Positions 21,611-37,774 of a stretch of 64,000 nt of DNA are shown here, piece after piece. Origin of the DNA: Mortierella sp. BCC40632 (lineage: Eukaryota; Mortierellomycota; Mortierellomycetes; Mortierellales; Mortierellaceae); NCBI GenBank assembly GCA_011634665.1, contig WAEK01000012.1:434001-498000 (forward strand), read 5' to 3'. The notes below the pieces were generated by a model that had not been told where the DNA came from, ran no database searches, and saw nothing but the letters and a program-made list of their open reading frames with translations. Position numbers and translations under genes: made by a program. The stretch's first letter is position 1. The number at the start of each line of letters is the position of its first letter.

Positions 21611-21643
<33 letters not shown>

Positions 21644-21755
21644 GAGAGAGAGAGTGATGGGGTTTCGGCATCTTTGGGCCATCATGTCGGGGTTAGTGGA
21701 CGCATTGACAGAGCTGGTTTAAAAAAAGAGAGAGGGGAGAAGAGGCCGTTTTCTT

Positions 21756-21789
<34 letters not shown>

Positions 21790-22597
21790 GCTCAAGTAAA
21801 CTCTTCTCATCTTCCTTCCTCATCTACTCCTTTCTCCTCCCACTTTAATGCCCCTCTCTTTCTCTATTTCCTTCTATCAATCTATCTATCTCTACATATT
21901 CCTCTCCTTCTCTCTCCCCTCTCTCTTTCTCCTTTGCGCTTGTTAGGGAGGTTGTCTTTGTAAATGAGGTATGTACAAAACATGATTGAGTACTGTCGTG
22001 GAGAAGATCGCTGTGCTCTACGTCAATCATGCCGAGATCAGGTCAAGAGGCTACTGAGATTCTCAAGAGTACACAAGATGAGCATTCCAATTGAGTGAAC
22101 AACAGCAAATATAGTAAGGGTAGAAACAAAAGCATCAGAAAGGCGGAGGGAAAATTAAAATGAGAAAAAAAAAAAAAAACTATTTGGCTAGTCAAAAGAA
22201 CCAAAGAACTATAGAAAAGATCATGCTTGCGATGACCACCCTAGCCCGTAATCGAGTTTCAAACTATGGTACCACAGGGGTCAAGAGTCCCTGTTGAGAT
22301 AGTCACCGCAGTAAAAGAGATGCTTGGTGAAAGAGTTTTCACTCTGCGTATTCCAATCGATCTATGATGAACTACAGTCAAAGCTGGCCGCTGCATTGGC
22401 TGACTTAACCAACCTTATTCTTTGATCGTTAGCAAAAGTGTCAGCCTTTATTTGGCTCTAACCAACTGGAAAACTGGCCAACTGTGATAAAAAGGGGGCA
22501 ATCTAGTTAACCGAAATTGACTGATTAACTGACCTGGTCGGTCAAAATAACAACTATACTTTTCGTCAGCCAAATCTCCGCCGATCATTGTATTTTG

Positions 22598-22846
22598 ATT
22601 GGTTGAAACCTTTTTTCACTCCTCTATCCAACTACTATATCCAAGTGGGTGCAGGCTGTCCACCCAACTGCCTCCAACCCGGAGTGGATGCTGTTACTAA
22701 AGAGCTCCTATCAGAGAATCAACATCCAAAGCATCTGTATCACCTCTGTTTTATCAGTCCCTCTTGGACTAACCCCTAGACACCCATTCCTCCTCCATCT
22801 CCCCCTTTCCAACCGTCACACCAAGGTGGCTGAGGTTGCATAAAAG
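22598..22846 (+). promoter_or_regulatory. Promoter of paralog A (CCAAT and TATA-like boxes)
   Basis: An inverted CCAAT box (ATTGG at 22598-22602) and a TATA-like ATAAAAG at about 22840 lie about 295 and 50 bases before the start codon. Both positions are conserved in unit C. In unit B the CCAAT box is kept but the TATA-like site is altered. Confidence 0.5.
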
Positions 22847-22894
22847 GGCTCTTCGAGTCATTTTTGTTCCTTCCCACACTTTCTTATCTCCACC

Positions 22895-25080
22895 ATGCTG
22901 CAACCGAACCCCGAGTAAGTAAGAGTTTCGACAAGTGGGTCTTCTAGTCAAAACCAGACGATGTCAGCTTCTTTTGGTACTGAATAAAGGACCTCTGTCT
23001 TCGACCATCAACAACAGCGAAGACTCCTCCGCCAACATATCAGATACTGAAGAATTAGTAGACAAGAAAGTGGTCGAAGAGCATTTCGGTGAGCAGGGAA
23101 CTAAGAATCAAGAACTTGAAGGCCACCCACCCGTATTACCACTTGGGTATGTAGCAAAATCGTTTTGACAGCAGTGGATATTCTTTCCTCAAATCAACCA
23201 AAGTTTTGAGAGGTGCCTTGAGATCCAGGATTGTTAACATATTGTATTTCACATGGGGCTATATTTCGATAATCTCGATTTTATCAGTGCTGGCGCTGAC
23301 GATATCACTCCTTTGTGCTCTATGTCAGGACTGGATCAAATGAGCGAGACTAACGAGTCTTCTCGTAGAGACCATGGAGCTTCTTCGAGGTAAACTACCT
23401 TGTGACTACGAATCCGTGCATCATGTATTTTAATAGTGTAAACTAACTATGGGTGTTCACCTGGTATGTTTAAACACACACAGTACAGGAGATAGTCAAG
23501 CTAGCTCCGATCCAGCTAAGGCTTGTAGCGAGAGAAAGGATATCAACATCCTTGTTATTGGACCACTCCGATCTGGAAACTCTGCGCTGATTGAAAATTT
23601 TCACAAGATCCTCAAGCCAGTTAGAGGACCCGACCAAAGCAAAACCGAACTTGATCATCTGAACACCAACGATGTCATCATCCATGAGTTCCAATCTCAT
23701 ATTCCAGACAATCAGGATCAAGAAGGGATGGGGCCTGACTCTGGTGAATATTGTTCAAATGAAGGCGTAGTTGACCTCAAGCATTCTCGGCTTTTCACAG
23801 AGCCAAATGAAAACCAGAACCTTGACAGCGGAGAAGCCACAGGGACTCTTCTTCGTGAGCCGGACCCTCGGGTCGAGTACAACTTCCGTATCTTTGACGC
23901 TCTAGCAACAACCGACGGCGCAAAGGGCTTTGGAGGCAATGCTGTGAGGAACGCTGGCAAGATACTGGAATCCCTATCCACGGTTCAAGAAATTCACTTG
24001 GTCCTTATTACTCTGGTATCGGGTGCACTGCTAACACAAGGTGTACTACAAGTCCTGGCAGACTATTGTACCATCCTTTCCGATATGAGTGGTATTACTG
24101 CATTTGTACACACGAACATGAGCTATCAGAATCAGAAAAACAGAGCAGAGCAAATTGAGGAAATCGTTAAAGTGGAGAACAGGCTGGACAAATACCTTGA
24201 TCGAAAAAACAGTTACTTTACCATCAACAGTCAGGCATCAATCTGGGAACTCCTTTCTCTTGCGGAAACGAATGCTCCAGTGTCAATCAGTCAAATGCGA
24301 CTTTACAAGACCCAGTGGATGCGTCATGTAGATGATATTATTATTAGATTCTGTACGATATCCCAGAATTTGATCCAGCAGCAGATCCTCAACGCAGCCA
24401 TGACAGGGAGCAACTCTACTAGACAGGCAACGGTGAGTATCCGGCTCAGACTCAACGAAACTCTAATCAACTACCGCGAGAAGCTATCCGAGCTCAAAAA
24501 CTACGACTCTGATTACCTCGAGCTACTTGCCGAGAGATGGAGTAATGAAAGACGAAGAGCTTTCGATTTTCTAAAGCTCGCGAGAGCCACAATTACACTT
24601 GAGGCCCCGAGGTTGGAATGCGCGATTGATGTGATTCGCGAGAAGAAATCTGGCTACCAAGTTCTAGATTTAGAAGGAGGAATTGGCTTTAATCATTGGA
24701 GGGTTGAGCTTAAGAGGAAAGCTTACAGGAAGGGAGCCTACTGTGCCAAGTTGTATGCTATGCGCCGCAATAAGTTCAGGATGCGTATTGCCGATCTTAG
24801 GCAGGATTTGAGACAAAGGGAATCAGACATTCGCGATCTCCGCAGACAATTAGCAGCTTGTGATGCACCGCCTAGTAGTGACGAGAGAACTGAAGAAGAG
24901 GTGAAACTACAAAAGATTCTCGAGGCCAAGGCGCGCGCTACACGAGAGAGAATTCACCCCAATCTCTTCATATCCGCTACAAGGGCTGGCGTGTACGATT
25001 GGATTTCAAACGGGCATGCGAAAAAGGCAGCCGAATTTTATGCAGACTATGTCCCTGAGGAGGATGAAGAGATTCCTTAG
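22895..25080 (+). CDS. AIG1/GIMAP-like degenerate GTPase paralog A
   Basis: Exons 22895-22914, 22958-23146, 23288-23389 and 23484-25080 give 635 residues in frame. Introns carry GTAAGT, GTATGT or GTAAAC donors, and intron 3 has an ACTAAC branch point. After an acidic N-terminus of about 100 residues comes a GTPase-like fold. G1 is GPLRSGNSAL, with Asn in place of the P-loop Lys; the G3-like motif is IFDALATTDG; the G4 region is FVHTNMSY; the G5-like motif is YFTINSQA. A long helical or coiled-coil region follows (CAKLYAMRRNKFRMRIADLR onwards). The TAG stop after EEIP precedes an intact reading of 14 more codons that copy C translates. Nucleotide binding is doubtful. The family assignment rests on motif order and is moderate; function is unknown. 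Confidence 0.75.
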
Positions 25081-25690
25081 TACTTTCTTGGAGCCGAGTT
25101 GAAAGAGACTGAAGAAGAAGAATAGTGTACCGATTAAAAGTATTGATTGTACTTCATATTATTTCTGAAGGGCACACTTGTTCAACTCTGTCGGTAAAAA
25201 GAACTCTCTTTAAGTAAATCCTTTCTTGGCAGAGTCAGTAAGACTACTGCCATTTGACCCTTTCCTCGAATATACGAGGGGTGATTTGAATCTCACGCAG
25301 AGACTGTCTATCCAATTTACAAATTGTTAATCCGGCAAGACATCATTGAGTAATGTTGGAATCTTGAGAAGATCGAGGAGGTTTGGGACCTCTAACAGTG
25401 AAAAGTAGAATGGCTCCATCAGGATTGCTGTCTACGACTGAATCATGAGAGTCGAACCACCATGTTGTCGTAGATAATTCGAGGTGTCAAAGCGGGATAT
25501 CTATTGTCGGTCAACCTGGAGAGTCCTCTCGCCAGATACCTTCAATTGAATCCTCTACTGAGATGACTGTGAAATCACAATATTCTTGTGAGATGGTTTA
25601 AGAAACACTAGGCTGTAGCAGCTCTTTCATCGTCCGATGTTTTTGAGTGGACTCACGGCCAGGAACTATTCCGATGAAAAAAAAAAAAAA

Positions 25691-27384
25691 AAAAAAAGAT
25701 ATCCAATAGGCGGTACAAACCTCCGTTCAGGTACGCCGAAACCCCACCTCTCTCTATTTTTTTTTGGGGGGGGGCGTGGCAATCGAGCTTACAACTCCAT
25801 CGATCGACGAAAGCTTTTGATATGAACAGTTTCTTTGTCGTATCTCCGCAATGTTCACAATAGTTTCGAGTAATAGTGCTGTCAAAATACAAGTTGGATT
25901 CAACATGAATTTTCTGGACATACGCCACTCTACACCATATTCCCACGTCGTTTTTGTGCCTCGATCTTTGATTCGTCTACAGTTGTCCAGTAGAGTAATT
26001 GGTTAGATGTCTCTTATTCGATAGATCTCACAAAAATGAGATGATGACCCTGACATGCTCTATCGTGCCTTTCAGTCTTTGGTCAGTCACCTGGATCTCA
26101 CAAGCTCTGCTACATGAAAAAAAAAAAAAAAAAAAAAGACACATCTACTAGGTTGACTGATGCGTTCAAAAGAAAGTACTGGCCAAGAAGGCAGGTCTAC
26201 TCTTGGGGACAGCTCAAACTTGACACTGGAGAGATGAAGAGGATCTCCGTTGCTGGTTGAGCACAACCGTTTGTGTTTTCTGTCTATTTGCCCAAAAATA
26301 AATAAAATAAAATAAAATAAAAGGGTGTTTGAGTAAGGTTTGGCACACGGACCAGCCTGCATCATGTCGTTGTTGTGTAGTTCTCAATATTTTTCTGTTG
26401 CATCCCCGTCGGTCTGTTTGCTACTCTCTGCTCTCTAAATAGACCTCAGAACAGAATCCCCTTGAAAAGGAGAAAAGCAACCTCTCGCCCTTTTTCAGCT
26501 GTGCAGGAAAAAAAATTGGTGGCAACAATTACGAAAAAAAAAATTTTTTTGACCAGAGTAGTGAGTCGAGAGGATAGATGCAATGAGGATACTGAGGACT
26601 TATTCCATGCACCGCTGGCTGCCATGGCAACCAGGAAAACCAGGTCAGCTGAATGGAGAGGCAATCAGGGTAATGCAGGAACACTCATTGCTGTCTCCAT
26701 CCTCCATCTTCGTCCTCATTACTCCTGCAATCAACTTGTCTTTCTCGCTTCTTGGAAGAACCCAAGCCCAAGACTCCAAGGGCGTAGGAGGCTTGACATC
26801 CTTCCCTTTTAGCTCAAGAACACCCACTTTTCTCTCTTTTCTCTCCTTGTCACTATCCCTCCCTCCTTACTGACCGCCAGCCACGGTCTTGCTCTCCCCT
26901 CTCAGGCTACTTCCAGACCCCTTTCCTCTGCCATCCACTCACCCTCTACTGGTCTCGCTTGGATGGGTGAGGCATCCTTGTGTAGATGCCACTGGAGCTT
27001 GAGCCTCTAGAGGGCAACGGCACGGCGGGTGACTCTGGTATGAAAGGCGTGAGAAGTCTGGGGGTCAGCCTAATGGATGTTCGAGGTAAGTCCAGTGGTT
27101 GTAAGTCCAGTCGAAGGGGTACGTCAGGAGAGCGGGTCTTCTCTACGCACCGTTTCTTTCTCCTCTCCCCTGCACGCGCGCAGGGGTCTGTGGTTTCTTC
27201 GGGGTCTCGCTCAGGAGGTAAATCTAGAGCAGAACAGAACACACATGAAATGGAGTGCTTGGTTTGCAACCTGCTCGTTGGCGCACTCTGCATATATCTC
27301 TCGGACTATCGAGGGTGAACTGATAGCAAACCACCTGATAGAGGTCTCTAGGATACCCCACCAGTCGAACAATAAAAAAAGTCT

Positions 27385-27419
<35 letters not shown>

Positions 27420-27714
27420 TCTTTTTGTTTTCTCTTTCTTCAAAGACTCAACAGCGATTCATCACCACAAGCTCAAGAACTCATCATGAATCTCACAAGG
27501 TCTACTTTTCTTTTCCTCTTTTCAACTCTAGGCAACTCTGGCTTGTGGATTGACCACTTCTCAGCACCCAGGAATGCCTCATGCTTAATGGACAACAACT
27601 CTTATACTTTTCTCACAGAAGGACACATAACAGACACGGAGTTAAGCCATTCATTCACAACAACATCCCTGTCAACATTACCAGGAGAAGAAAGAGATGA
27701 ACAGGCGTTAATTT
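25691..27714. other. Spacer between inverted units A and B
   Basis: About 2 kb without a confident gene. It holds a 30-base echo of the unit's outer edge (25733-25768), a T/G run at 25758-25777, A runs at 26116-26137, AATAA repeats near 26298, and a CT microsatellite at 27385-27420. One exon-like stretch at 26986-27085 starts with ATG and ends at a good GTAAGT donor. Confidence 0.5.
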
Positions 27715-28321
27715 TTTTTTTTCTTCATCGGAACAGTGCCTGGCTGTGAAACCATTCAAAAACATCGGACGATGAAAGAGCTGCTACAGCCTAGTGTTTC
27801 TTAAACCATCTCACAAGAATATTGTGATTTCACAGTCATCTCAGTAGAGGATTCAATTGAAGGTATCTGGCGAGAGGACTCTCCAGGTTGACCGACAATA
27901 GATATCCCGCTTTGACACCTCGAATTATCTACGACAACATGGTGGTTCGACTCTCATGATTCAGTCGTAGACAGCAATCCTGATGGAGCCATTCTACTTT
28001 TCACTGTTAGAGGTCCCAAACCTCCTCGATCTTCTCAAGATTCCAACATTACTCAATGATGTCTTGCCGGATTAACAATTTGTAAATTGGATAGACAGTC
28101 TCTGCGTGAGATTCAAATCACCCCTCGTATATTCGAGGAAAGGGTCAAATGGCAGTAGTCTTACTGACTCTGCCAAGAAAGGATTTACTTAAAGAGAGTT
28201 CTTTTTACCGACAGAGTTGAACAAGTGTGCCCTTCAGAAATAATATGAAGTACAATCAATACTTTTAATCGGTACACTATTCTTCTTCTTCAGTCTCTTT
28301 CAACTCGGCTCCAAGAAAGTA

Positions 28322-30524
28322 CTAAGGAATCTTCTTCATCCTCCTCAGGGACATAGTCTGCATAAAATTCGGCTGCCTTTTCGCATGCCCGTTTGAAATC
28401 CAATCGTACACGCCAGCCCTTGTAGCGGATATGAAGAGATTGGGGTGAATTCTCTCTCGTGTAGCGCGCGCCTTGGCCTCGAGAATCTTTTGTAGTTTCA
28501 CCTCTTCTTCAGTTCTCTCGTCACTACTAGGCGGTGCATCACAAGCTGCTAATTGTCTGCGGAGATCGCGAATGTCTGATTCCCTTTGTCTCAAATCCTG
28601 CCTAAGATCGGCAATACGCATCCTGAACTTATTGCGGCGCATAGCATACAACTTGGCACAGTAGGCTCCCTTCCTGTAAGCTTTCCTCTTAAGCTCAACC
28701 CTCCAATGATTAAAGCCAATTCCTCCTTCTAAATCTAGAACTTGGTAGCCAGATTTCTTCTCGCGAATCACATCAATCGCGCATTCCAACCTCGGGGCCT
28801 CAAGTGTAATTGTGGCTCTCGCGAGCTTTAGAAAATCGAAAGCTCTTCGTCTTTCATTACTCCATCTCTCGGCAAGTAGCTCGAGGTAATCAGAGTCGTA
28901 GTTTTTGAGCTCGGATAGCTTCTCGCGGTAGTTGATTAGAGTTTCGTTGAGTCTAAGCCGGATACTCACCGTTGCCTGTCTAGTAGAGTTGCTCCCTGTC
29001 ATGGCTGCTTCGAGGATCTCCTGTTGGATCGAATTCTGGGACATCGTGCAGAATTCAACAATAATATCATCGTAACGACGCATCCACTGGGTCTTGTAAA
29101 GTCGTATTTGATTAACTGACATTGGAACATTCGTATCCGCAAGAGAAAGGAGCTCCCAGATTGATGCTTGACTGTCGATGGTAAAGTAACTGTTTTTTCG
29201 ATCAAGGTATTTGTCCAGCCTGTTCTCCACTTTAACGATTTCCTCAATTTGCTCTGCTCTGTTTTTCTGATTCTGATAGCTCATGTTCGTGTGTACAAAT
29301 GCAGTAATACCACTCATATCGGAAAGGATGGTACAATAGTCTTCCAGGACGTGTAGTGCATATTGTGTTAGCAGTGCACCCGATACCAGAGTAATAAGGA
29401 CCAAGTGAATTTCTTGAACCATGGATAAAGATTTCATTATATTGCCAACGTTGCTCACTGAACTGTTTCCAATGATCCATACGCCATCGGTTGTTGCTGG
29501 GGCGTCAAAGATACGGAAATTGTACTCGACCCGAGGGTCCGGCTCACGAACGAGATCCCTTGTGGTTTCTCCGCTGTCGAGGTTCTGGTTTTCATTTGAA
29601 TCTGTGTAAAACGGAGAATATTCATGGTCGGCTACGTCCTTGTCCGAATGATATGAACCATGGTCGCTCCCTATCTTTTCTTGATTCCGATTGATGACAT
29701 CAACCAGCTCGTATTCTGGAATATGAGATTGGAACTCACTGACGGTGACATCATTGGTGGGCGGTTGGTCTAGTCCGATTTCGCTAGAGTCAAACCTTCT
29801 ATTTGGGTCGAGGCACCTGTGGATTTCTTCAATCAGCGAGGACTTCTTAGACTGAGATGATCCAATAACAAGAATATTGATATCTTTTCTCCCGCCACGA
29901 CCCTCAACTGGGCCAGCGCCAGGTTGGTTGTCCCTAGTACTGTTTATTTTAAGCATGCCAGGAGAATACTCATAGTTAGTTTATACGATTAAAATAAAGG
30001 ATGTACAGACTCGCAGTCACAAGGTAGTTTACCTCGAAGAAGCTCCATGGTCTCTACGAGAAGCCTCGTGAGTCTCGCTCGTTTGACCCAGTCCTGACAT
30101 AGAGCACAAAGAAGTGGTCTCATCTTCTCTAGAGCTAATACAATAAGTAATATCGAAAGTTAGCCCCATGTGAAATACAACGAGCTAATAACCTTGGATC
30201 GCCAAGGTATCTCTCAGACTCTTATTGATTTGAAATAAAAATACACTGCCATCAAATGGCATTGCTACATACTCAAGTGGGAACACGTGTGGATCACCTT
30301 CAAGTTCTTGATCCTTAGTACCCTGCTCACCGAAATGCTCTTCGACCACTTTCTTGTCGACTAATTCTTCAGTTTCTGATATGTTAGCGGAAGAGTCTTC
30401 GCTGCTGTTGATGGTCGAAGACAGAGGTCCTTTATTCAGTACTAAAAGAAGCTGACATCGTCTGGGTTTGACTAAAAGGCTCACTTGTCGAAACTCTTAC
30501 TTACTCGGGGTTCGGTTGCAGCAT
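28322..30524 (-). CDS. AIG1/GIMAP-like degenerate GTPase paralog B
   Basis: Exons 30524-30505, 30461-30273, 30134-30033 and 29939-28322 give 642 residues in frame; splice sites and exon lengths 1-3 (20, 189 and 102 nt) equal those of copy A. The G1 motif differs: GSSQSKKSSL keeps the Lys-Ser pair but replaces the preceding Gly with Lys. G3-like motif IFDAPATTDG; G4 region FVHTNMSY; coiled-coil region nearly identical to A. Near the end a one-base loss in an A run shifts the frame for about 15 codons. A one-base gain then restores it just before the same TAG stop used by A, so the local acidic segment reads as a basic one. Whether B is functional is unclear. Confidence 0.72.
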
Positions 30525-30572
30525 GGTGGAGATAAGAAAGTGTGGGAAGAAACAAAAATGACTTGAAGAGCC

Positions 30573-30822
30573 CTTTCATGCAACCCCAGCCACCTTGGTG
30601 TGACGCTTGGAGAAGGGGAGATGGAGGAGGGATGGAAGTTGAGGGCCTTGGTCCAAGAGGGACTGATAAAACAGAGGTGATACAGATGCTATGCATGTTG
30701 ATTCTCTGATAGGAGCTCTGTAGTAACAGCATCCACTCCGGGTTGGAGGCAGTTGGGTGGACAGCCTGCACCCACTTGGATATAGTAGTTGGATAGAGGA
30801 GTGAAAAAAGGTTTCAACCAAT
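30573..30822 (-). promoter_or_regulatory. Promoter of paralog B
   Basis: CCAAT box at 30818-30822 at the same distance from the start as in A. The TATA-like site aligned with A reads ATGAAAG here (30573-30580), a possible weakening. Confidence 0.45.
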
Positions 30823-31443
30823 CAAGATACAATGATCGGCGGAGATTTGGTTGACGAAGAGACCGACCAGTTCCGTTAATCGGTCGATTTCGGTTAACTA
30901 GATTGCCCCCTTTTTATCACAGTTGGCCAGTTTTCCAGTTGGTTAGAGCCAAACAAATGCTGACACTTTAGCTAGCGACCAGAGAATAGTGTTGATTATG
31001 TCAGCCAATGCAGCGGTCAACTTTGAGTGTAGTTCATCATAGACCGATTAGAATACGCAGAGTGAAGACTCTTTCACCAAACATCACTTTTACTGCGGTG
31101 ACTATCTCAACAGGGACTCTTGACCCCTGTGGCACCATAGTTTGAAACTCGAGTACGATCTAGGGTGGCCATCGCAATCATGATCTTTTCCCAGGTTCTT
31201 TGATTCTTTTGACTAGTCAAATAGTTTTTTTTTTTTTTTTTTTTTTTATAATCTCATTTTACTTTTCCCTCCACCTTTCTGATCCTTTCGCTTCTACCCT
31301 TACTAGATTTGCTGTTGTTCACTCAATTGGAATGCTCATCTTGTGTACTCTTGAGTACCTCAGTAGCCTCTTGACCTGATCTCGGCATGTTTGGTGTAGA
31401 GCACAGCGATCTTCTCCACGACAGTACTCAATCATGTTTTGTA

Positions 31444-31586
31444 TTCTCCATTTCAGATGTTTTTGACCTCATTTAGCGTTGCTTATTTGTAGAATAACAT
31501 GCCCCTTCGCAGTAGCCCCGTGCAACGGACTGTGCATAATCCTCGAAAATAAGAATGGAAAAAACAAAAATATCTGAAATGGAGAA
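31444..31586. mobile_element. MITE-like element, 143 bp, TA target duplication
   Basis: Terminal inverted repeats of 22 bases with one mismatch, starting TTCTCCATTTCA, flanked on both sides by TA. The matching place in unit A (about 21993) is an uninterrupted empty site with a single TA, so this is a true insertion. There is no coding capacity. The TA duplication fits the Tc1/mariner superfamily; the mobilising transposase is not in the window. Confidence 0.85.
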
Positions 31587-32440
31587 TACATACCTCATTT
31601 ACAAGGACCACCTCCCTAACAAGCGCAAAGGAGAAAGAGAGACAGGGGAGAGAGAAGGAGAGGAAGATGTAAAGATAGATAGATTGATAGAAGGAAATAG
31701 AGAAAGAGAGGGGCATTAAAGTGGGAGGAGAAAGGAGTAGATGAGGAAGGAAGATGAGAAGAGTTTACTTGAGCGTATTTTTTTTTTTTTTTTTTTTTTT
31801 TTTTGAAGAAAACGGCCTCTTCTCCCCTCTCTCTCTTTTAAACAGCAGCTCTGTCAATGCGTCCACTAACCCCGACATGATGGCCCAAAGATGCCGAAAC
31901 CCCATCACTCTCTCTATTTTTTTTTCATCGTTGTAGTTCACTGGTTGTGAAACCCATTCAAAAACATTGGACAACGAAGGAGCAAAGAATCATGAAATTT
32001 CAAAGTCATCTCAGCGGAAAATTTAGTAGAAGCTAGCTGGCGAGGGGACTCTCCAGGTTGGCCTGACAATAAATACCTTGCTGTGACATCTCGAATAATC
32101 TAGGACAACGTGATGGCCCAATTATCACGATGCAATCGTAGTCAATGATCCAGATGGTGCCATTCTATTTCTCATTGTTTGTTGGCGGTTCTAAAAAGTT
32201 CTTGGTATTCTTAAGAGTCCAACAATGATTAATGATGTCTTGTCGAATTAACATGTTAGACAATCTTAGAACGAGACCCAAATCAACCCTCATAGAATGG
32301 AATAAAGGGTTACGCGGCAGCTGTCCCATGAACTCTTTCTAGAGAGAATTTATTTGCAAAGAGCTCTTTCGCCGACAGATTTGGACAGGAGTGCCCTTCA
32401 GAAATAATATGAAGTGCGAGCAAAAATTTCAATTAGTACA

Positions 32441-34624
32441 CTATTCTTCTTCTTCAGTATCGCTCAACTCGGCTCCAAGAAAGTACCATGGAATCTCTTC
32501 ATCCTCCTCAGGGACATAGTCTGCATAAAATTCGGCTGCCTTTTTCGCATGCTCGTTTGAAATCCAATCGTACACGCCAGCCCTTGCAGCGGATATAAAG
32601 AGATTAAGGTGAATTCTCTCTCGTGTAGCGCGCGCCTTGGCCTCGAGAACCTTTTGTAGCTTCACTTTTTCTTCAGACATCTCGTTGCTATTGGGTGATA
32701 CATCACAAGCTACTAATTGTCTGCGGAGACGGCGGATTGTAGACTCTTCTTGTCCCATATCTTGCTTAAGATTGGCAATACGCATCCTGAACTTATTGCG
32801 GCGCATAGCATACAACTTGGCACAGTAGGCTCTCTTCCTGTAATCATTTTTCTTAAGCCCAACCTTCCAATGATTAAATCCAATTCCTCCTTCTGAATCT
32901 ACAACCTGGTAGCCACCCTTCTTTTCGCGAATCGCGTCAATCGCACACTCCAACTCGGAGGCCTCAAGCGTAACCGTGTTTCTCATGAACATTACAGACT
33001 CGAAACCACCTCTTCTAATACTCCATTCCTCTGCTAGTAGCTCGAGGATATCGGAGTCGTAGTTCTTGAGCTCGGATAGCTTCTCGCGGTAGTCGATTAG
33101 GGTTTTGTTGAATTCGAGTCGGAAACTCTCCGCCGCTTGTCTAGTAGGGCTACTCCTTGTCATAACTGCGTCAAGGATCTGCTGCTGGATCAAATTCTGG
33201 GATATCGTACAGAATCTAATAACGGTATCATCTACATGACGCATCCACTGGGTCTTGTAAAGTCTCATTTGACTGGTTGATACTGGGACATTCGTTTGCG
33301 CAATAGTGATGAGTTCTTGAGCTACGGTCTCTATGTTGGAGAAACGGGATGGTAGCTTCACACGTTCAACCGAGCTGATGGAAAAGTAATTATTTTTTCG
33401 GCCAATGATTCGGTCTAGATTGTCCATGATTTCGTTGTTCTGCCCTTTCCCCTTATTCTGGTTCTGGTAGCTCATGTCTGTGTGTACAAATGCAGTAACA
33501 TCACTCATATCGGAAAGGAGGACACAATGGTCTGCCAGGACTTGTAGTATGCCTTGTGTTAGCTGTGCGCCCGATGCCAAGGTAATCAAGACCAAGTGAA
33601 TATCTTGAACCGTGGATAGGGATTCCAGTATCTTGCCAGCGTTCCTCACAGCATTGCCTCCAAAGCCCTTTGCGCCGTCGGTTGTTGCTAGAGCGTCAAA
33701 GATACGGAAATTGTACTCTACCCGAGGATCCAGCTCACGAAGAAGAGTCCCTGTGGCTTCTCCGCTGTCAAGGTTCTGGTTTTCATTTGGCTCTGTGAAA
33801 AGCCGAGAATGCTTGAGGTCAACTACGCCTTCATTTGAACAATATTCACCAGAGTCAGGCCCCATCCCTTCTTGATCCTGATTGTCTGGAATATGAGATT
33901 GGAACTCATGGATGATGACATCGTTGGTGTTCAGATGATCAAGTTCGGTTTTGCTTTGGTCGGGTCCTCTAACTGGCTTGAGGATCTTGTGAAAATTTTC
34001 AATCAGCGCAGAGTTTCCAGATCGGAGTGGTCCAATAACAAGGATGTTGATATCCTTTCTCTCGCTACAAGCCTTAGCTGGATCGGAGCTATCTTGACTA
34101 TCTCTTGTACTGTGTGTGTTTAAACATACCAGGTGAACACCCATAGTTAGTTTACACTATTAAAATACATGATGCACGGATTCGTAGTCACAAGGTAGTT
34201 TACCTCGAAGAAGCTACATGGTGTCTACGAGAAGCCTCGTGAGTCTCGCTCATTTGGCCCAGTCCTGACATAGAGCGCAAATGAGTAGTTTCATCGTCAC
34301 CAGTGCTGATAAATTAAGAAATATTGAAAGATAGCCCCATGCGAAATACAATGTATGTAGCCAAGGTTAATGATCCTAGACCTCTAAGTATCTCTCAAAG
34401 CTATAGTTGATTTGCAAAAAGTTTACGGTCGTCAAATTAATTGCTAAATACCCAAGTGGTAATATATGTGGATCATCTCCAAGTTCTTGATCCTCAGTTC
34501 CCTGCTCGCCGAAATGCTCTTCATTTGCTTTCTTGTCGACTAGTTCTTCAATCTCCTCTATGTTAACCGAAGAACCTTCGTCGCTGTTGATGGTCAAAGA
34601 CAAGGGTTCTTCATTCAGTATCAT
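32441..34624 (-). CDS. AIG1/GIMAP-like degenerate GTPase paralog C
   Basis: Exon 2 from ATG 34624 to 34452, then 34305-34204 and 34109-32441, gives 647 residues in frame. C has the full tail (EEIPWYFLGAELSDTEEEE) that A and B lose at TAG. The G1 motif is the same as in A (GPLRSGNSAL). The segment after the G4 region is longer than in A and B (an extra stretch around SSVERVKLPSRFSN). The short first exon seen in A and B has a counterpart (ATG near 34698), but joining it through any visible splice site breaks the frame, so I use the ATG inside exon 2. This is the best preserved member of the three. Confidence 0.72.
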
Positions 34625-34741
34625 GGAAATGGCATTATCTGGCTTTGACTAAAACGTTCACTCGTCGAAACTCTTACTTACTCAAGGTTCGGTTGCATCG
34701 CGGTGGATAGGAAAGTGTGGGAACAAAAATAACTCGGAGAG

Positions 34742-34964: not shown

Positions 34965-35066
34965 CAAAATAAATTTGTTGGCGGAGTTTTGGTTGACAAA
35001 AAGTATAGTCGGTTTAGTTGATCGACCAGCCCTGTTAGCCAGTCGATTTCAGTTAACTAGACCACT

Positions 35067-36071
35067 TTTTTTTTTTTTTTTTCAGGCCCCGTTAGGGGTT
35101 TTTTTTCATCGACGCGCACTCGTCCCACAATCTGCGGACGTGGCTAGCTAGTTCTCAAAACTACACTACCCTACAACAGAAGAGTAGAGAGAAGAAGGAA
35201 AAGGTGGAGGGTGACCCAGAAACGACAGAGCTACTAAAAATACAGATGCAGAGAAAGGAGAAAAAGACCAGATACAAAGAGCACCCGCAGAGGAAGGTTG
35301 CACACTCTTGTCTCAGCAGATAGAGGTAGCTGATCCATCCGGATTTCCAATATCTCAGGAGGTGACGCCCCAGCATCGTGGTACAGGGTGCAGTAGAGCC
35401 CGTGGCTGTGAAAAGGTGCGAAGAGAGTACGAGAGAAGGGGGGAAATACCAGTCCACAGCAACTAGGCTTGAAACAAGTGCTGTGTTGTGTTATATGTTG
35501 CATGTAACGCATCTCGACCCGGAACCTCATCTCCTTCATATACTTTCTCCCTCCTCTCGTGTGTCGAAAATAACTGTCTTGACTAGTTACCATTTTTGCA
35601 AAGAAACTCAAAGGTTAGTTCCTTGTCAAGGCAGTTGATCCCACTTTTCGTTTCATGCATTTTTTTTTGTCAATACTTGTTAGCAATGAGGCTGAATAGA
35701 AAAGAGCAACCTTTTTGCCTTCTCGGAATCTCTCTAGGGTTTGCCATGACCTGAATATCAAATCCTTAAGGCAGTCATGTTCAATAAGGAGAATTCGTCT
35801 CTTTGGACTGTTCATCTCGGATATCAACTCTATCGATCGCAGTTCTAACCTGCAGTTTGTTAATTGGCCACTTGTATTCCGGATGAGAGATTATAAATGA
35901 AGTGGTTGCTTAAAGATAATTTGTAACTTTCATATTCACCAGGGTCAAAAATGTGGATGCATAGCCGAGAACATTATGCAGACGTTCTACATTAACATGA
36001 ACTATATAAACCATGGTTTTGAATGAGTTCAGTACATATATTTGATTCGCTTTAATTCGCTTCAGCCTGCT
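35067..36071. other. Intergenic region between unit C and the Sel1 gene
   Basis: Begins with a T run and a short GC palindrome (CCCCGTTAGGGG at 35088-35099) followed by T8. No supported gene in the rest. Confidence 0.5.
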
Positions 36072-37774
36072 TTAAAAAATCGAGAAAAAGTTGGATAAAT
36101 AATCAAAACGGTTCTTGGCCCCGATATGACCTTGGTTGGCTGCCTTCAAATACCATTCCTTAGCTTTGTCCTTATCCTTTTGAAGACCCAGGCCAAGGTG
36201 GTACATGGCGCCCAAGCAATACTGGGCGCCGACATATCCTTGATTGGCAGCCTTAAGGTACCACTCTGCTGCTTTAGATTCATCCTTTGGAACGCCCTTG
36301 CCATCCCGGTAGAGATTACCCAATTCATACTGGGCGCAGACAAATCCTTGGTTGGCAGCCTTCAGGTACCACTCCGCTGCTTTAGATTCGTCCTTTGGAA
36401 CGCCCTTGCCATCTCGGTACAGGTTGCCCATTTCATACTGGGCGTCAGTAAATCCTTGATTGACAGCCTTCAGGTACCACTCTGCTGCTTTAGATTCGTT
36501 CTTTGGAAGGCCCTTGCCATCTCGGTACAGATTGCCCACGTAATACTGGGCTCTGGCATATCCTTGGTTTGCGGCCTTCAGGTACCACTCTGCTGCTTTA
36601 GATTCGTCCTTTGGAACGCCCTTGCCATCCCGGTACAGATTGCCCATTTCATACTGGGCGTCAGTTAATCCTTGATTGGCAGCCTTCAGGCACCACTCCA
36701 CTGCTTTAGATTCGTCCTTTGGAAGGCCCTTGCCATTTCGGTGCATTTCACCCACGTAATACTGGGCTCTGGCATATCCTTGATTTGCAGCCTTCAGGAA
36801 CCACTCTGCTGCTTTGGAAAAGTCTCTTTGGACACCACTGCCAGTAAGAAATAAACTACCTATCCCGAACTGACTCTTGGCATTATCTTGATCGACAGCC
36901 TTCAAGTACATCTCCATTGCTTTGAAATAGTCCCGTGGAACACCAAAGCCAAATTGGTACATGAGACCCAACTTAGACTGGGCTTTGGCGTGTCCTTGGT
37001 TGGCAGCCTTCAAAAACCACTTCATAGCTTTAGAATAGTTCTGCGGAACACCATCCCCCTTAAAGTAAGATTCGCCTTGATCATAAAGAGTTTCCAAATC
37101 CAATCTTTGAGTGTTCAGAGATACATTTAGAGAGGGCTTGTTAGCGCTGCTTTCGAAGGCCGACAGTGCATGACCGTAAAATCCCACATTTGCAATTTCC
37201 TCTTCAGGTATGGCTTGTGGTGCTTTCTTTGTCATTCCATCCCAAGAGGATGGCCAGCTAACGTTTGGTTCAGTACAAGACTGTGGCGATCTTACAGCTG
37301 GATAGTCAGCTTCTGCTAAATTTTGAGAGAGATGATATGGCAGTAAATATCCACAGCATGATCTAAATTATTATCTATACTCGTTCATTACTTACTTGGC
37401 ATTCCCAGAACAACGTCCAACACCACACCTGGGTAAACACGAATTCGATGTGGCTCAATGCTATGAGCAGGTTCATGTACAAAGCGAGCATTAGATGGCG
37501 GTGTTTTGTAGATAAGCCATCAACAGACTGGCCTCAGGATGACTTACTACTCGAAGTCCTCGTTCATTAAGAAGGGAACCACAGTGCCTTCATTTTGTAT
37601 GTACAAAGGATCTTTAAAAACCATTTGTATATCCTTCCAAAGAATAATCCGTTCCCGTGTGATCTTATCAAGACGGGTCTCAATAACAACTACATGAGAC
37701 TGTGGATGGGTTGGATATCCTTTGTGGAGAGAACGAAACGCCTGGGTGTGTAGCTGGGGTCCTCCAACTTGCAT
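36072..37774 (-). CDS. Sel1-repeat protein with N-terminal domain
   Basis: Exons 37774-37548, 37460-37396 and 37315-36072 join to 511 residues in frame; start is the ATG at 37774. The N-terminal about 95 residues (ending IEPHRIRVYPGVVLDVVLG) form a compact domain that, from memory, also precedes Sel1 arrays in other Mortierella proteins. A Ser-rich linker follows, then nine Sel1 repeats of 36 residues and a partial tenth. The repeat consensus is AQYEMGNLYRDGKGVPKDES followed by KAAEWYLKAANQG. Sel1/TPR-like solenoids scaffold protein complexes. Repeats 4-5 and 6-7 are nearly the same pair, showing recent two-unit duplication. No catalytic domain is seen. It lies about 1 kb from the GTPase-like cluster, on the same strand as copies B and C. 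Confidence 0.85.
36108..37094 (-). repeat. Nine 108-bp Sel1-coding tandem repeats
   Basis: DNA repeat period 108 bp, matching the 36-residue protein repeat. The central copies (about 36240-36780) are so alike at DNA level that they must be recently amplified; the outer copies are more diverged. Confidence 0.85.

What the first reader, a model, noticed from the sequence alone, without database searches (positions are those of the whole stretch)
22895..34624. Copy A of the GTPase-like trio is a mosaic of copies B and C
Read codon by codon, A switches partner repeatedly. Exons 1-2 are like B. Intron 3 and the start of exon 4 up to about 23985 are like C, including an intron 3 that I could not distinguish from C. 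About 23986-24035 is B-like, 24036-24062 C-like, 24063-24265 B-like, 24270-24390 C-like, and from about 24395 through the 3' flank to about 25640 nearly identical to B. Past 25640 identity with B falls abruptly. This pattern is expected from repeated ectopic gene conversion between inverted and tandem copies, which shuffles variant segments between paralogs.
Basis: seen in the sequence. Interest (0 to 1): 0.75.

Follow-up and report, generated by a model that had tools for sequence, protein, structure and literature searches.

The report
Mosaic gene copy from gene conversion
In a soil fungus, one of three neighbouring copies of a degenerate GTPase gene is a patchwork of the other two, best explained by repeated copying of sequence between the copies, a well-known process.

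Summary
Copy A (22895-25080, +) changes partner: 141 A=C against 4 A=B sites at 23403-23984, then 0 against 8, 0 against 37 and 1 against 227 in three B-like stretches. B-C synonymous divergence is fairly even (dS 0.25-0.59), so rate variation is not the cause. Trees with 10 paralogs give A+C in the first tract, A+B in the last, alternatives rejected.

Corrections: the small "C-like" patches are not clean C copies and the larger is unresolved by tree; A's 23134-23310 resembles neither copy, and a genome search found no better match; the trio lack the G1, G3 and G4 motifs, which 14 of 21 other long members match. The 7 of 9 protein hits that carry names are Mortierellaceae; a relative's predicted G domain is Toc34/GIMAP-like.

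Best explanation: serial ectopic gene conversion after an inverted duplication. Known kind, moderate interest.

The parts
22895..25080 (+). Copy A gene; modelled exons 22895-22914, 23018-23146, 23288-23389, 23484-25080 (stop TAG 25078-25080)
   Evidence: Splice enumeration keeping frame into the long exon-4 ORF, choosing among several models the one that agrees with C and B; not confirmed by transcripts
28322..30524 (-). Copy B gene, inverted to A; exon 4 carries compensating -1/+1 indels in its last codons
   Evidence: Three-way alignment, ORF, gap list
32441..34698 (-). Copy C gene, tandem with B
   Evidence: Three-way alignment, ORF
21642..25678 (+). Whole A unit: inverted copy of B plus the B-C spacer, ending in poly-A runs on both sides
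   Evidence: Self-BLAST and A-B upstream alignment, 51/856 mismatches; junctions
27712..31925 (-). B unit homologous to the A unit
23403..23984 (+). C-like tract in A (most of intron 3 and 5' part of exon 4, P-loop included): AC 6/582
   Evidence: tree of 23485-23984 A+C 100/99, A+B rejected p 0.0025
23985..24266 (+). B-like tract in A, interrupted at 24037-24061; AB 8/282 in all, 0/216 in 23985-24036 plus 24062-24225
24037..24061 (+). Island, 5 A=C and 2 A=B sites; AB 5/25 against 0/216 in its flanks
   Evidence: p 8e-6 for the discontinuity; origin from C not shown
24267..24395 (+). Island of unresolved origin: 19 A=C, 8 A=B sites; tree undecided; the three-state HMM calls 24313-24333 and 24342-24385 C-like
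24396..25641 (+). Near-identical A-B tract (1/1245 plus two 1-nt indels) through the stop codon and 3' flank
   Evidence: tree of 24396-25020 A+B 100/98, A+C rejected p 0.009
23134..23310 (+). Orphan block of A (end of exon 2, intron 2, start of exon 3): 25-32% from both B and C
   Evidence: genome search with 23110-23400 found, besides A itself, only B (80%) and C (75%)
25672..25697 (+). Unit-end junction CGATGA(A)n of A; same motif at 27719 and 31919 (ends of B and C) and at 35100 upstream of C
   Evidence: Four matches in the 64-kb window, none in seven paralog stretches of 66 kb

Best explanation
Copy A is a gene-conversion mosaic. B and C are old tandem copies (exon-4 dS about 0.3-0.5). 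A is an inverted copy of one array unit (B plus its upstream spacer); its upstream flank now differs from B by 6%. Later, during repair of a break in A, about 0.6 kb was copied from C (intron 3 and the first third of exon 4, with the degenerate P-loop). A and B also exchanged sequence in 23985-24266 and, most recently, over 1.2 kb from 24396 into the 3' flank. Shown: the tracts, their different divergence, and the conflicting trees. Inferred: break repair as the mechanism, the order of events, and direction C to A (A is B-like to the right of the tract and, beyond the orphan block, to its left); direction between A and B is unknown. Protein consequence: A joins C's 5' part of the degenerate G domain to B's remainder and C-terminal part.
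For: Non-random partner switching (83 runs against 282 expected; permutation p<=0.0005; HMM). B-C windowed dS 0.25-0.59, while A-C is 0, 0, 0.07 in the first three 60-codon windows and 0.11-0.48 after, and A-B is 0.56, 0.46, 0.22 and then 0-0.14 (its last window includes B's frameshifted tail). Of 127 A=C sites in 23484-23984, 29 are shared-derived by outgroup majority, 37 B-derived, 61 undecided, so B divergence alone does not explain them. Trees of two segments conflict with 98-100 support. Divergence differs by tract: A-C 6/582 against A-B upstream 51/856, p 6e-7; A-B 3' tract 1/1245 against upstream, p 1.7e-19.
Against: The small patches do not fit clean copying from C. The orphan block 23134-23310 needs a lost donor, or A as an older third lineage overwritten by conversion, which would also weaken the argument for direction C to A. 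No reads or second strain were available.
Confidence: 0.85

Rival explanations
1. A was born chimeric in one event (template switching between B and C during the inverted duplication) and has only diverged since.
For: Unit borders at poly-A runs and a short shared junction motif suit replication-based rearrangement. One event is simpler.
Against: Divergence differs between tracts: 6.0% (A-B upstream), 1.0% (A-C), 0.08% (A-B 3'); p 6e-7 (A-C against upstream), 0.005 (A-C against A-B 3'), 1.7e-19 (A-B 3' against upstream). The 3' A-B tract must be later than the 5' flank.
Confidence: 0.05
2. Assembly artefact: reads of different copies were merged or mispolished, so A is only apparently mosaic.
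For: The A-B 3' tract is nearly identical, and B's two 1-nt indels (A homopolymer and GAA repeat) could be residual long-read errors where polishing is ambiguous (the sequencing method is not known to me).
Against: The A-C tract holds 6 differences in 582 bases and C stays at its usual distance from B, so there is no reciprocal swap and no exact collapse. The A-B tract ends about 37 bases before the end of the homologous unit. C12 is a 1.6-Mb contig of a 62-contig assembly.
Confidence: 0.07
3. No exchange: uneven selection or mutation rate, with B evolving fast in the 5' part of exon 4 and C in the 3' part.
For: In 24267-24395 the pattern does look like B-private change (of 19 A=C sites 0 shared-derived, 6 B-derived, 13 undecided).
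Against: B-C synonymous distance is fairly even along exon 4; 29 A=C shared-derived sites lie in the main tract; intron 3 is identical in A and C (0/94).
Confidence: 0.03
4. Variant of the best explanation, not exclusive of it: A is an old third lineage, not a young copy of B; all its B-like and C-like parts, 5' flank included, are conversion tracts, and 23134-23310 and the islands are its native remains.
For: Explains the orphan block without a lost donor; the islands are less C-like than the main tract.
Against: The A-B similarity reaches the unit border through about 0.9 kb of spacer outside the gene, more simply a duplication.
Confidence: 0.3

Closest known systems
Interlocus (ectopic) gene conversion between inverted paralogs, e.g. 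the Saccharomyces chromosome XIV flip/flop repeats (PMC9731477; abstract and section list seen)
   Same: Inverted repeat carrying members of a fast-evolving gene family, kept nearly identical over kilobases by homogenisation.
   Different: Here only parts of the arms are homogenised and a third, divergent copy has also donated; no inversion polymorphism was tested.
Podospora anserina het-d/het-e (NWD) family with concerted evolution (PMC1805685; abstract and section list seen)
   Same: Fungal multigene family in which sequence is exchanged between members; that these genes carry an NTPase domain is recalled.
   Different: There WD repeats are exchanged and selected for allorecognition; here the exchanged parts are the degenerate G domain and C-terminal region, with no function tested.
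Toc34/GIMAP (AIG1-like) GTPases

Membership tests
Ectopic gene conversion | Non-reciprocal tract: recipient resembles the donor only inside sharp borders while the donor keeps its usual distance to the third copy | tested here: met
   A switches partner; B-C dS fairly even, 0.25-0.59
Ectopic gene conversion | Tracts longer than expected from shuffled polymorphic sites | tested here: met
   p<=0.0005 for A-B and A-C
Ectopic gene conversion | Conflicting phylogenies of segments of one gene | tested here: met
   A+C in 23485-23984, A+B in 23985-24395 and 24396-25020; other pairings rejected, p 0.0025-0.009
Ectopic gene conversion | Small patches 24037-24061 and 24267-24395 derive from C | tested here: inconclusive
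   Tree of the second patch does not decide (A+C p 0.29, B+C p 0.155, best tree A+B at 69/68); together less C-like than the main tract
Ectopic gene conversion | Tract borders vary between strains | not testable with these tools
   No second strain at hand; the protein search with copy B gave no hit among 7993 scored candidates
TRAFAC GTPases, Toc34/GIMAP-like | G-domain fold in the family (relative P0002) | tested here: met
   pLDDT 84 with a 12-row alignment that includes A, B and C; Foldseek and VIA-align 2
TRAFAC GTPases, Toc34/GIMAP-like | G-domain fold in A itself | tested here: inconclusive
   Model of A from a 3-row alignment failed (pLDDT 33)
TRAFAC GTPases, Toc34/GIMAP-like | Intact G1, G3 and G4 motifs in A, B, C | tested here: not met
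   0 of 3 match GxxxxGK[ST], DTPG or HTK; 14 of 21 other long members match all three patterns, one of them (L029) with an HTK outside the G4 site
TRAFAC GTPases, Toc34/GIMAP-like | Curated Pfam cut-offs | tested here: not met
   No GTPase hit in A, B, C. Of 7 paralogs, 6 list AIG1 at 13.5-22.3 bits, all under the cut-off 27; but 6 of 7 pass the general GTPase family MMR_HSR1 (cut-off 21.9) and 2 of 7 Dynamin_N
Fungal non-self recognition repertoire (HNWD-like) | Polymorphism between strains and a cell-death phenotype | not testable with these tools
   No strain data

The most novel reading that the evidence does not exclude
A Mortierellaceae-specific cluster of Toc34/GIMAP-like GTPases and pseudo-GTPases is a recognition repertoire whose G-domain and C-terminal modules are reshuffled by ectopic gene conversion, comparable in logic to the NWD genes of Podospora but built on a different protein fold.
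Probability: 0.08. Interest if true: 0.7.

Novelty: new member of a known kind. Interest (0 to 1): 0.33.

Why it matters
It is a clear case of serial gene conversion between inverted and tandem paralogs in an early-diverging fungus, with tracts of measurably different divergence. It shows that paralog trees for this Mortierellaceae GTPase family must be made segment by segment, and that a degenerate nucleotide-binding motif can be passed between copies by conversion.

Tried and rejected
Rate variation in B or C was tested with windowed dS and outgroup polarity and rejected for the large tracts. A fourth donor for 23110-23400 was sought in the genome; besides A itself only B and C matched. B's 29000-29990 has no closer source than A and C among 6 matches. 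Both searches score only the best candidates and skip very common words.

Conversion elsewhere in the family was tested by permutation in five further sets (four other groups, one of them run twice). Two groups gave significant pairs: the 398-414 kb array (L021/L025, L024/L025, L021/L024 and L024/L026) and the 356-372 kb group (L013/L014); the 347-354 kb and 517-526 kb groups gave none. Because G domains are conserved, I checked dS for those two groups. L021/L025 falls to 0.10-0.30 in three windows against 0.31-1.43 in the other seven, which suggests exchange; L024/L025 has 0.29-0.36 there against 0.32-0.83, no clear contrast. L013/L014 has 0.44 in one window against 0.56-2.4, weak.

The AlphaFold model of A with three rows failed (pLDDT 33) and was not used for fold searches. 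Pfam found no GTPase family in A, B or C at E<=1; the solved-structure sequence search with B gave 4 rows at E 0.39-0.97, none a GTPase by name; the protein search with B gave no hits. That the CGATGA(A)n site at 35100 marks the relic of a fourth unit was checked by BLAST of 35062-35700 and not supported (one 13-base match, E 0.30). Literature searches showed no paper on conversion in this family in the rows listed (8-20 per search, of 37 to 2,217 papers); only open-licence PMC texts are held. Two papers were opened, abstract and section list only; all others were seen in search listings.

Full report
Setting. The window is C12:434001-498000 of a 49.9-Mb, 62-contig genome. A protein search with an intact paralog gave 9 hits among 7996 scored candidates; 7 carry names: Lunasporangiospora selenospora (5), Entomortierella lignicola and Modicella reniformis (1 each) (that these genera belong to Mortierellaceae is recalled). 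A protein search of the genome finds 27 places: 19 longer and 3 short ones on C12 between 347 and 530 kb, and 5 on C4. A, B and C are the only close trio; the next paralogs are at most 48% identical in protein to A.

Anatomy. A (22895-25080, +) faces B and C (both -). The A unit, 21642-25678, is an inverted copy of the B unit 27712-31925, including the spacer up to the 3' end of C. Units end at CGATGA(A)n, found four times in the window: at the ends of A, B and C and once upstream of C. Modelled exons of A are 22895-22914, 23018-23146, 23288-23389 and 23484-25080; other splice choices also keep the frame.

The mosaic. Of 3018 ungapped columns in 22502-25640, 419 are A=B only, 211 A=C only, 43 B=C only and 15 all different. 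A=B and A=C sites fall in 83 runs against 282 expected. Shuffling the 688 polymorphic columns 2000 times never reached the longest A-B fragment (24448-25636) or the best A-C fragments (23503-23851 without mismatch, 23408-23981 with penalised mismatches).

Control. B against C is the internal control: its windowed dS is 0.25-0.59 along exon 4, while A-C goes from 0-0.07 to 0.28-0.48 (0.11 in the last window) and A-B from 0.22-0.56 to 0-0.14 (the last window of B pairs includes B's frameshifted tail). In trees with 10 paralogs, 23485-23984 gives A+C (100/99; A+B rejected, p 0.0025), 23985-24395 as a whole gives A+B (100/98; A+C rejected, p 0.0076), and 24396-25020 gives A+B (100/98; A+C rejected, p 0.009). 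24267-24395 alone is undecided: A+B 69/68, A+C p 0.29, B+C p 0.155.

In 24267-24395, 19 sites are A=C and 8 A=B (binomial p 0.052); by outgroup majority none of the 19 is shared-derived, 6 are B-derived and 13 undecided; synonymous sites put A nearer B (24268-24393, 42 codons, dS 0.15 against 0.23) while nonsynonymous sites put it nearer C. In 24037-24061 A agrees with C at 5 sites and with B at 2 adjacent ones; of the 5, 1 is shared-derived, 3 B-derived, 1 undecided. Together these islands differ from C at 12 of 154 sites against 6 of 582 in the main tract, p 2.8e-5, so they are not simply leftovers of the same C-derived copy.

A's 23134-23310 differs from B at 55/174 and from C at 42/171 sites, about as much as B from C (52/170), although the A-B flank differs by 6.0% (51/856). 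A genome search found no better match. Either a donor was lost, or A is an older third lineage and this is its native remnant.

Order and direction. A-B 3' tract 1/1245, A-C tract 6/582 and A-B flank 51/856 differ in pairs (A-C against A-B 3', p 0.005; A-C against flank, p 6e-7; A-B 3' against flank, p 1.7e-19), suggesting several exchanges of different age. C to A is favoured because A is B-like to the right of the tract and, beyond the orphan block, to its left; it is an inference, and A to C is possible if A is an old lineage. Direction between A and B is open.

Beyond the trio. The 398-414 kb array shows three windows where L021 and L025 have dS 0.10-0.30 against 0.31-1.43 in the other seven (permutation p 0.003, the floor). 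Two L. selenospora proteins with nearby locus tags (P0002/P0003) are 80-100% identical in 7 of 15 windows of 40 residues and 35-68% in the other 8; part of this follows general conservation, since L018 against P0002 is also higher in several of the same windows, and no DNA was at hand to test dS. Two of the four other groups tested showed no significant pair. Exchange may thus recur in the family, but this is suggestive only.

Verdict. A real, strongly supported gene-conversion mosaic; a new instance of a well-known process, with the small patches and the orphan block left unresolved.

Noticed in passing
24396-25641 and its inverted partner in B, about 27.76-29.01 kb: Nearly identical inverted arms of 1.2 kb around a roughly 2-kb unique spacer (25690-27712) could support inversion of the spacer between strains; not tested.
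   Followed up: no
25078-25080 (A) and the same codon in B: A and B share a TAG that cuts off a C-terminal tail still open downstream in A; C and relatives L012 and L015 have tryptophan there.
   Followed up: partly
B exon 4 end, about 28322-28385: A -1 and a +1 indel in B scramble about 17 residues and return to the same stop; they may be real or residual sequencing errors.
   Followed up: partly
31443-31585: About 142 bases in the B-C spacer are absent from the corresponding place in the A unit (21973).
   Followed up: no
C12:398-414 kb (L021, L024-L027): A second array of the family with low-dS windows between L021 and L025, suggesting conversion there too.
   Followed up: partly
36022-37077 (gene 36072-37235, -): Sel1-repeat protein gene with repeats of a 108-nt period; copies in register are 61-82% identical to the reference copy (Sel1 by Pfam).
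   Followed up: no
35100: The unit-end motif CGATGA(A)n also lies just upstream of C, without similarity around it to the ends of A, B or C.
   Followed up: partly
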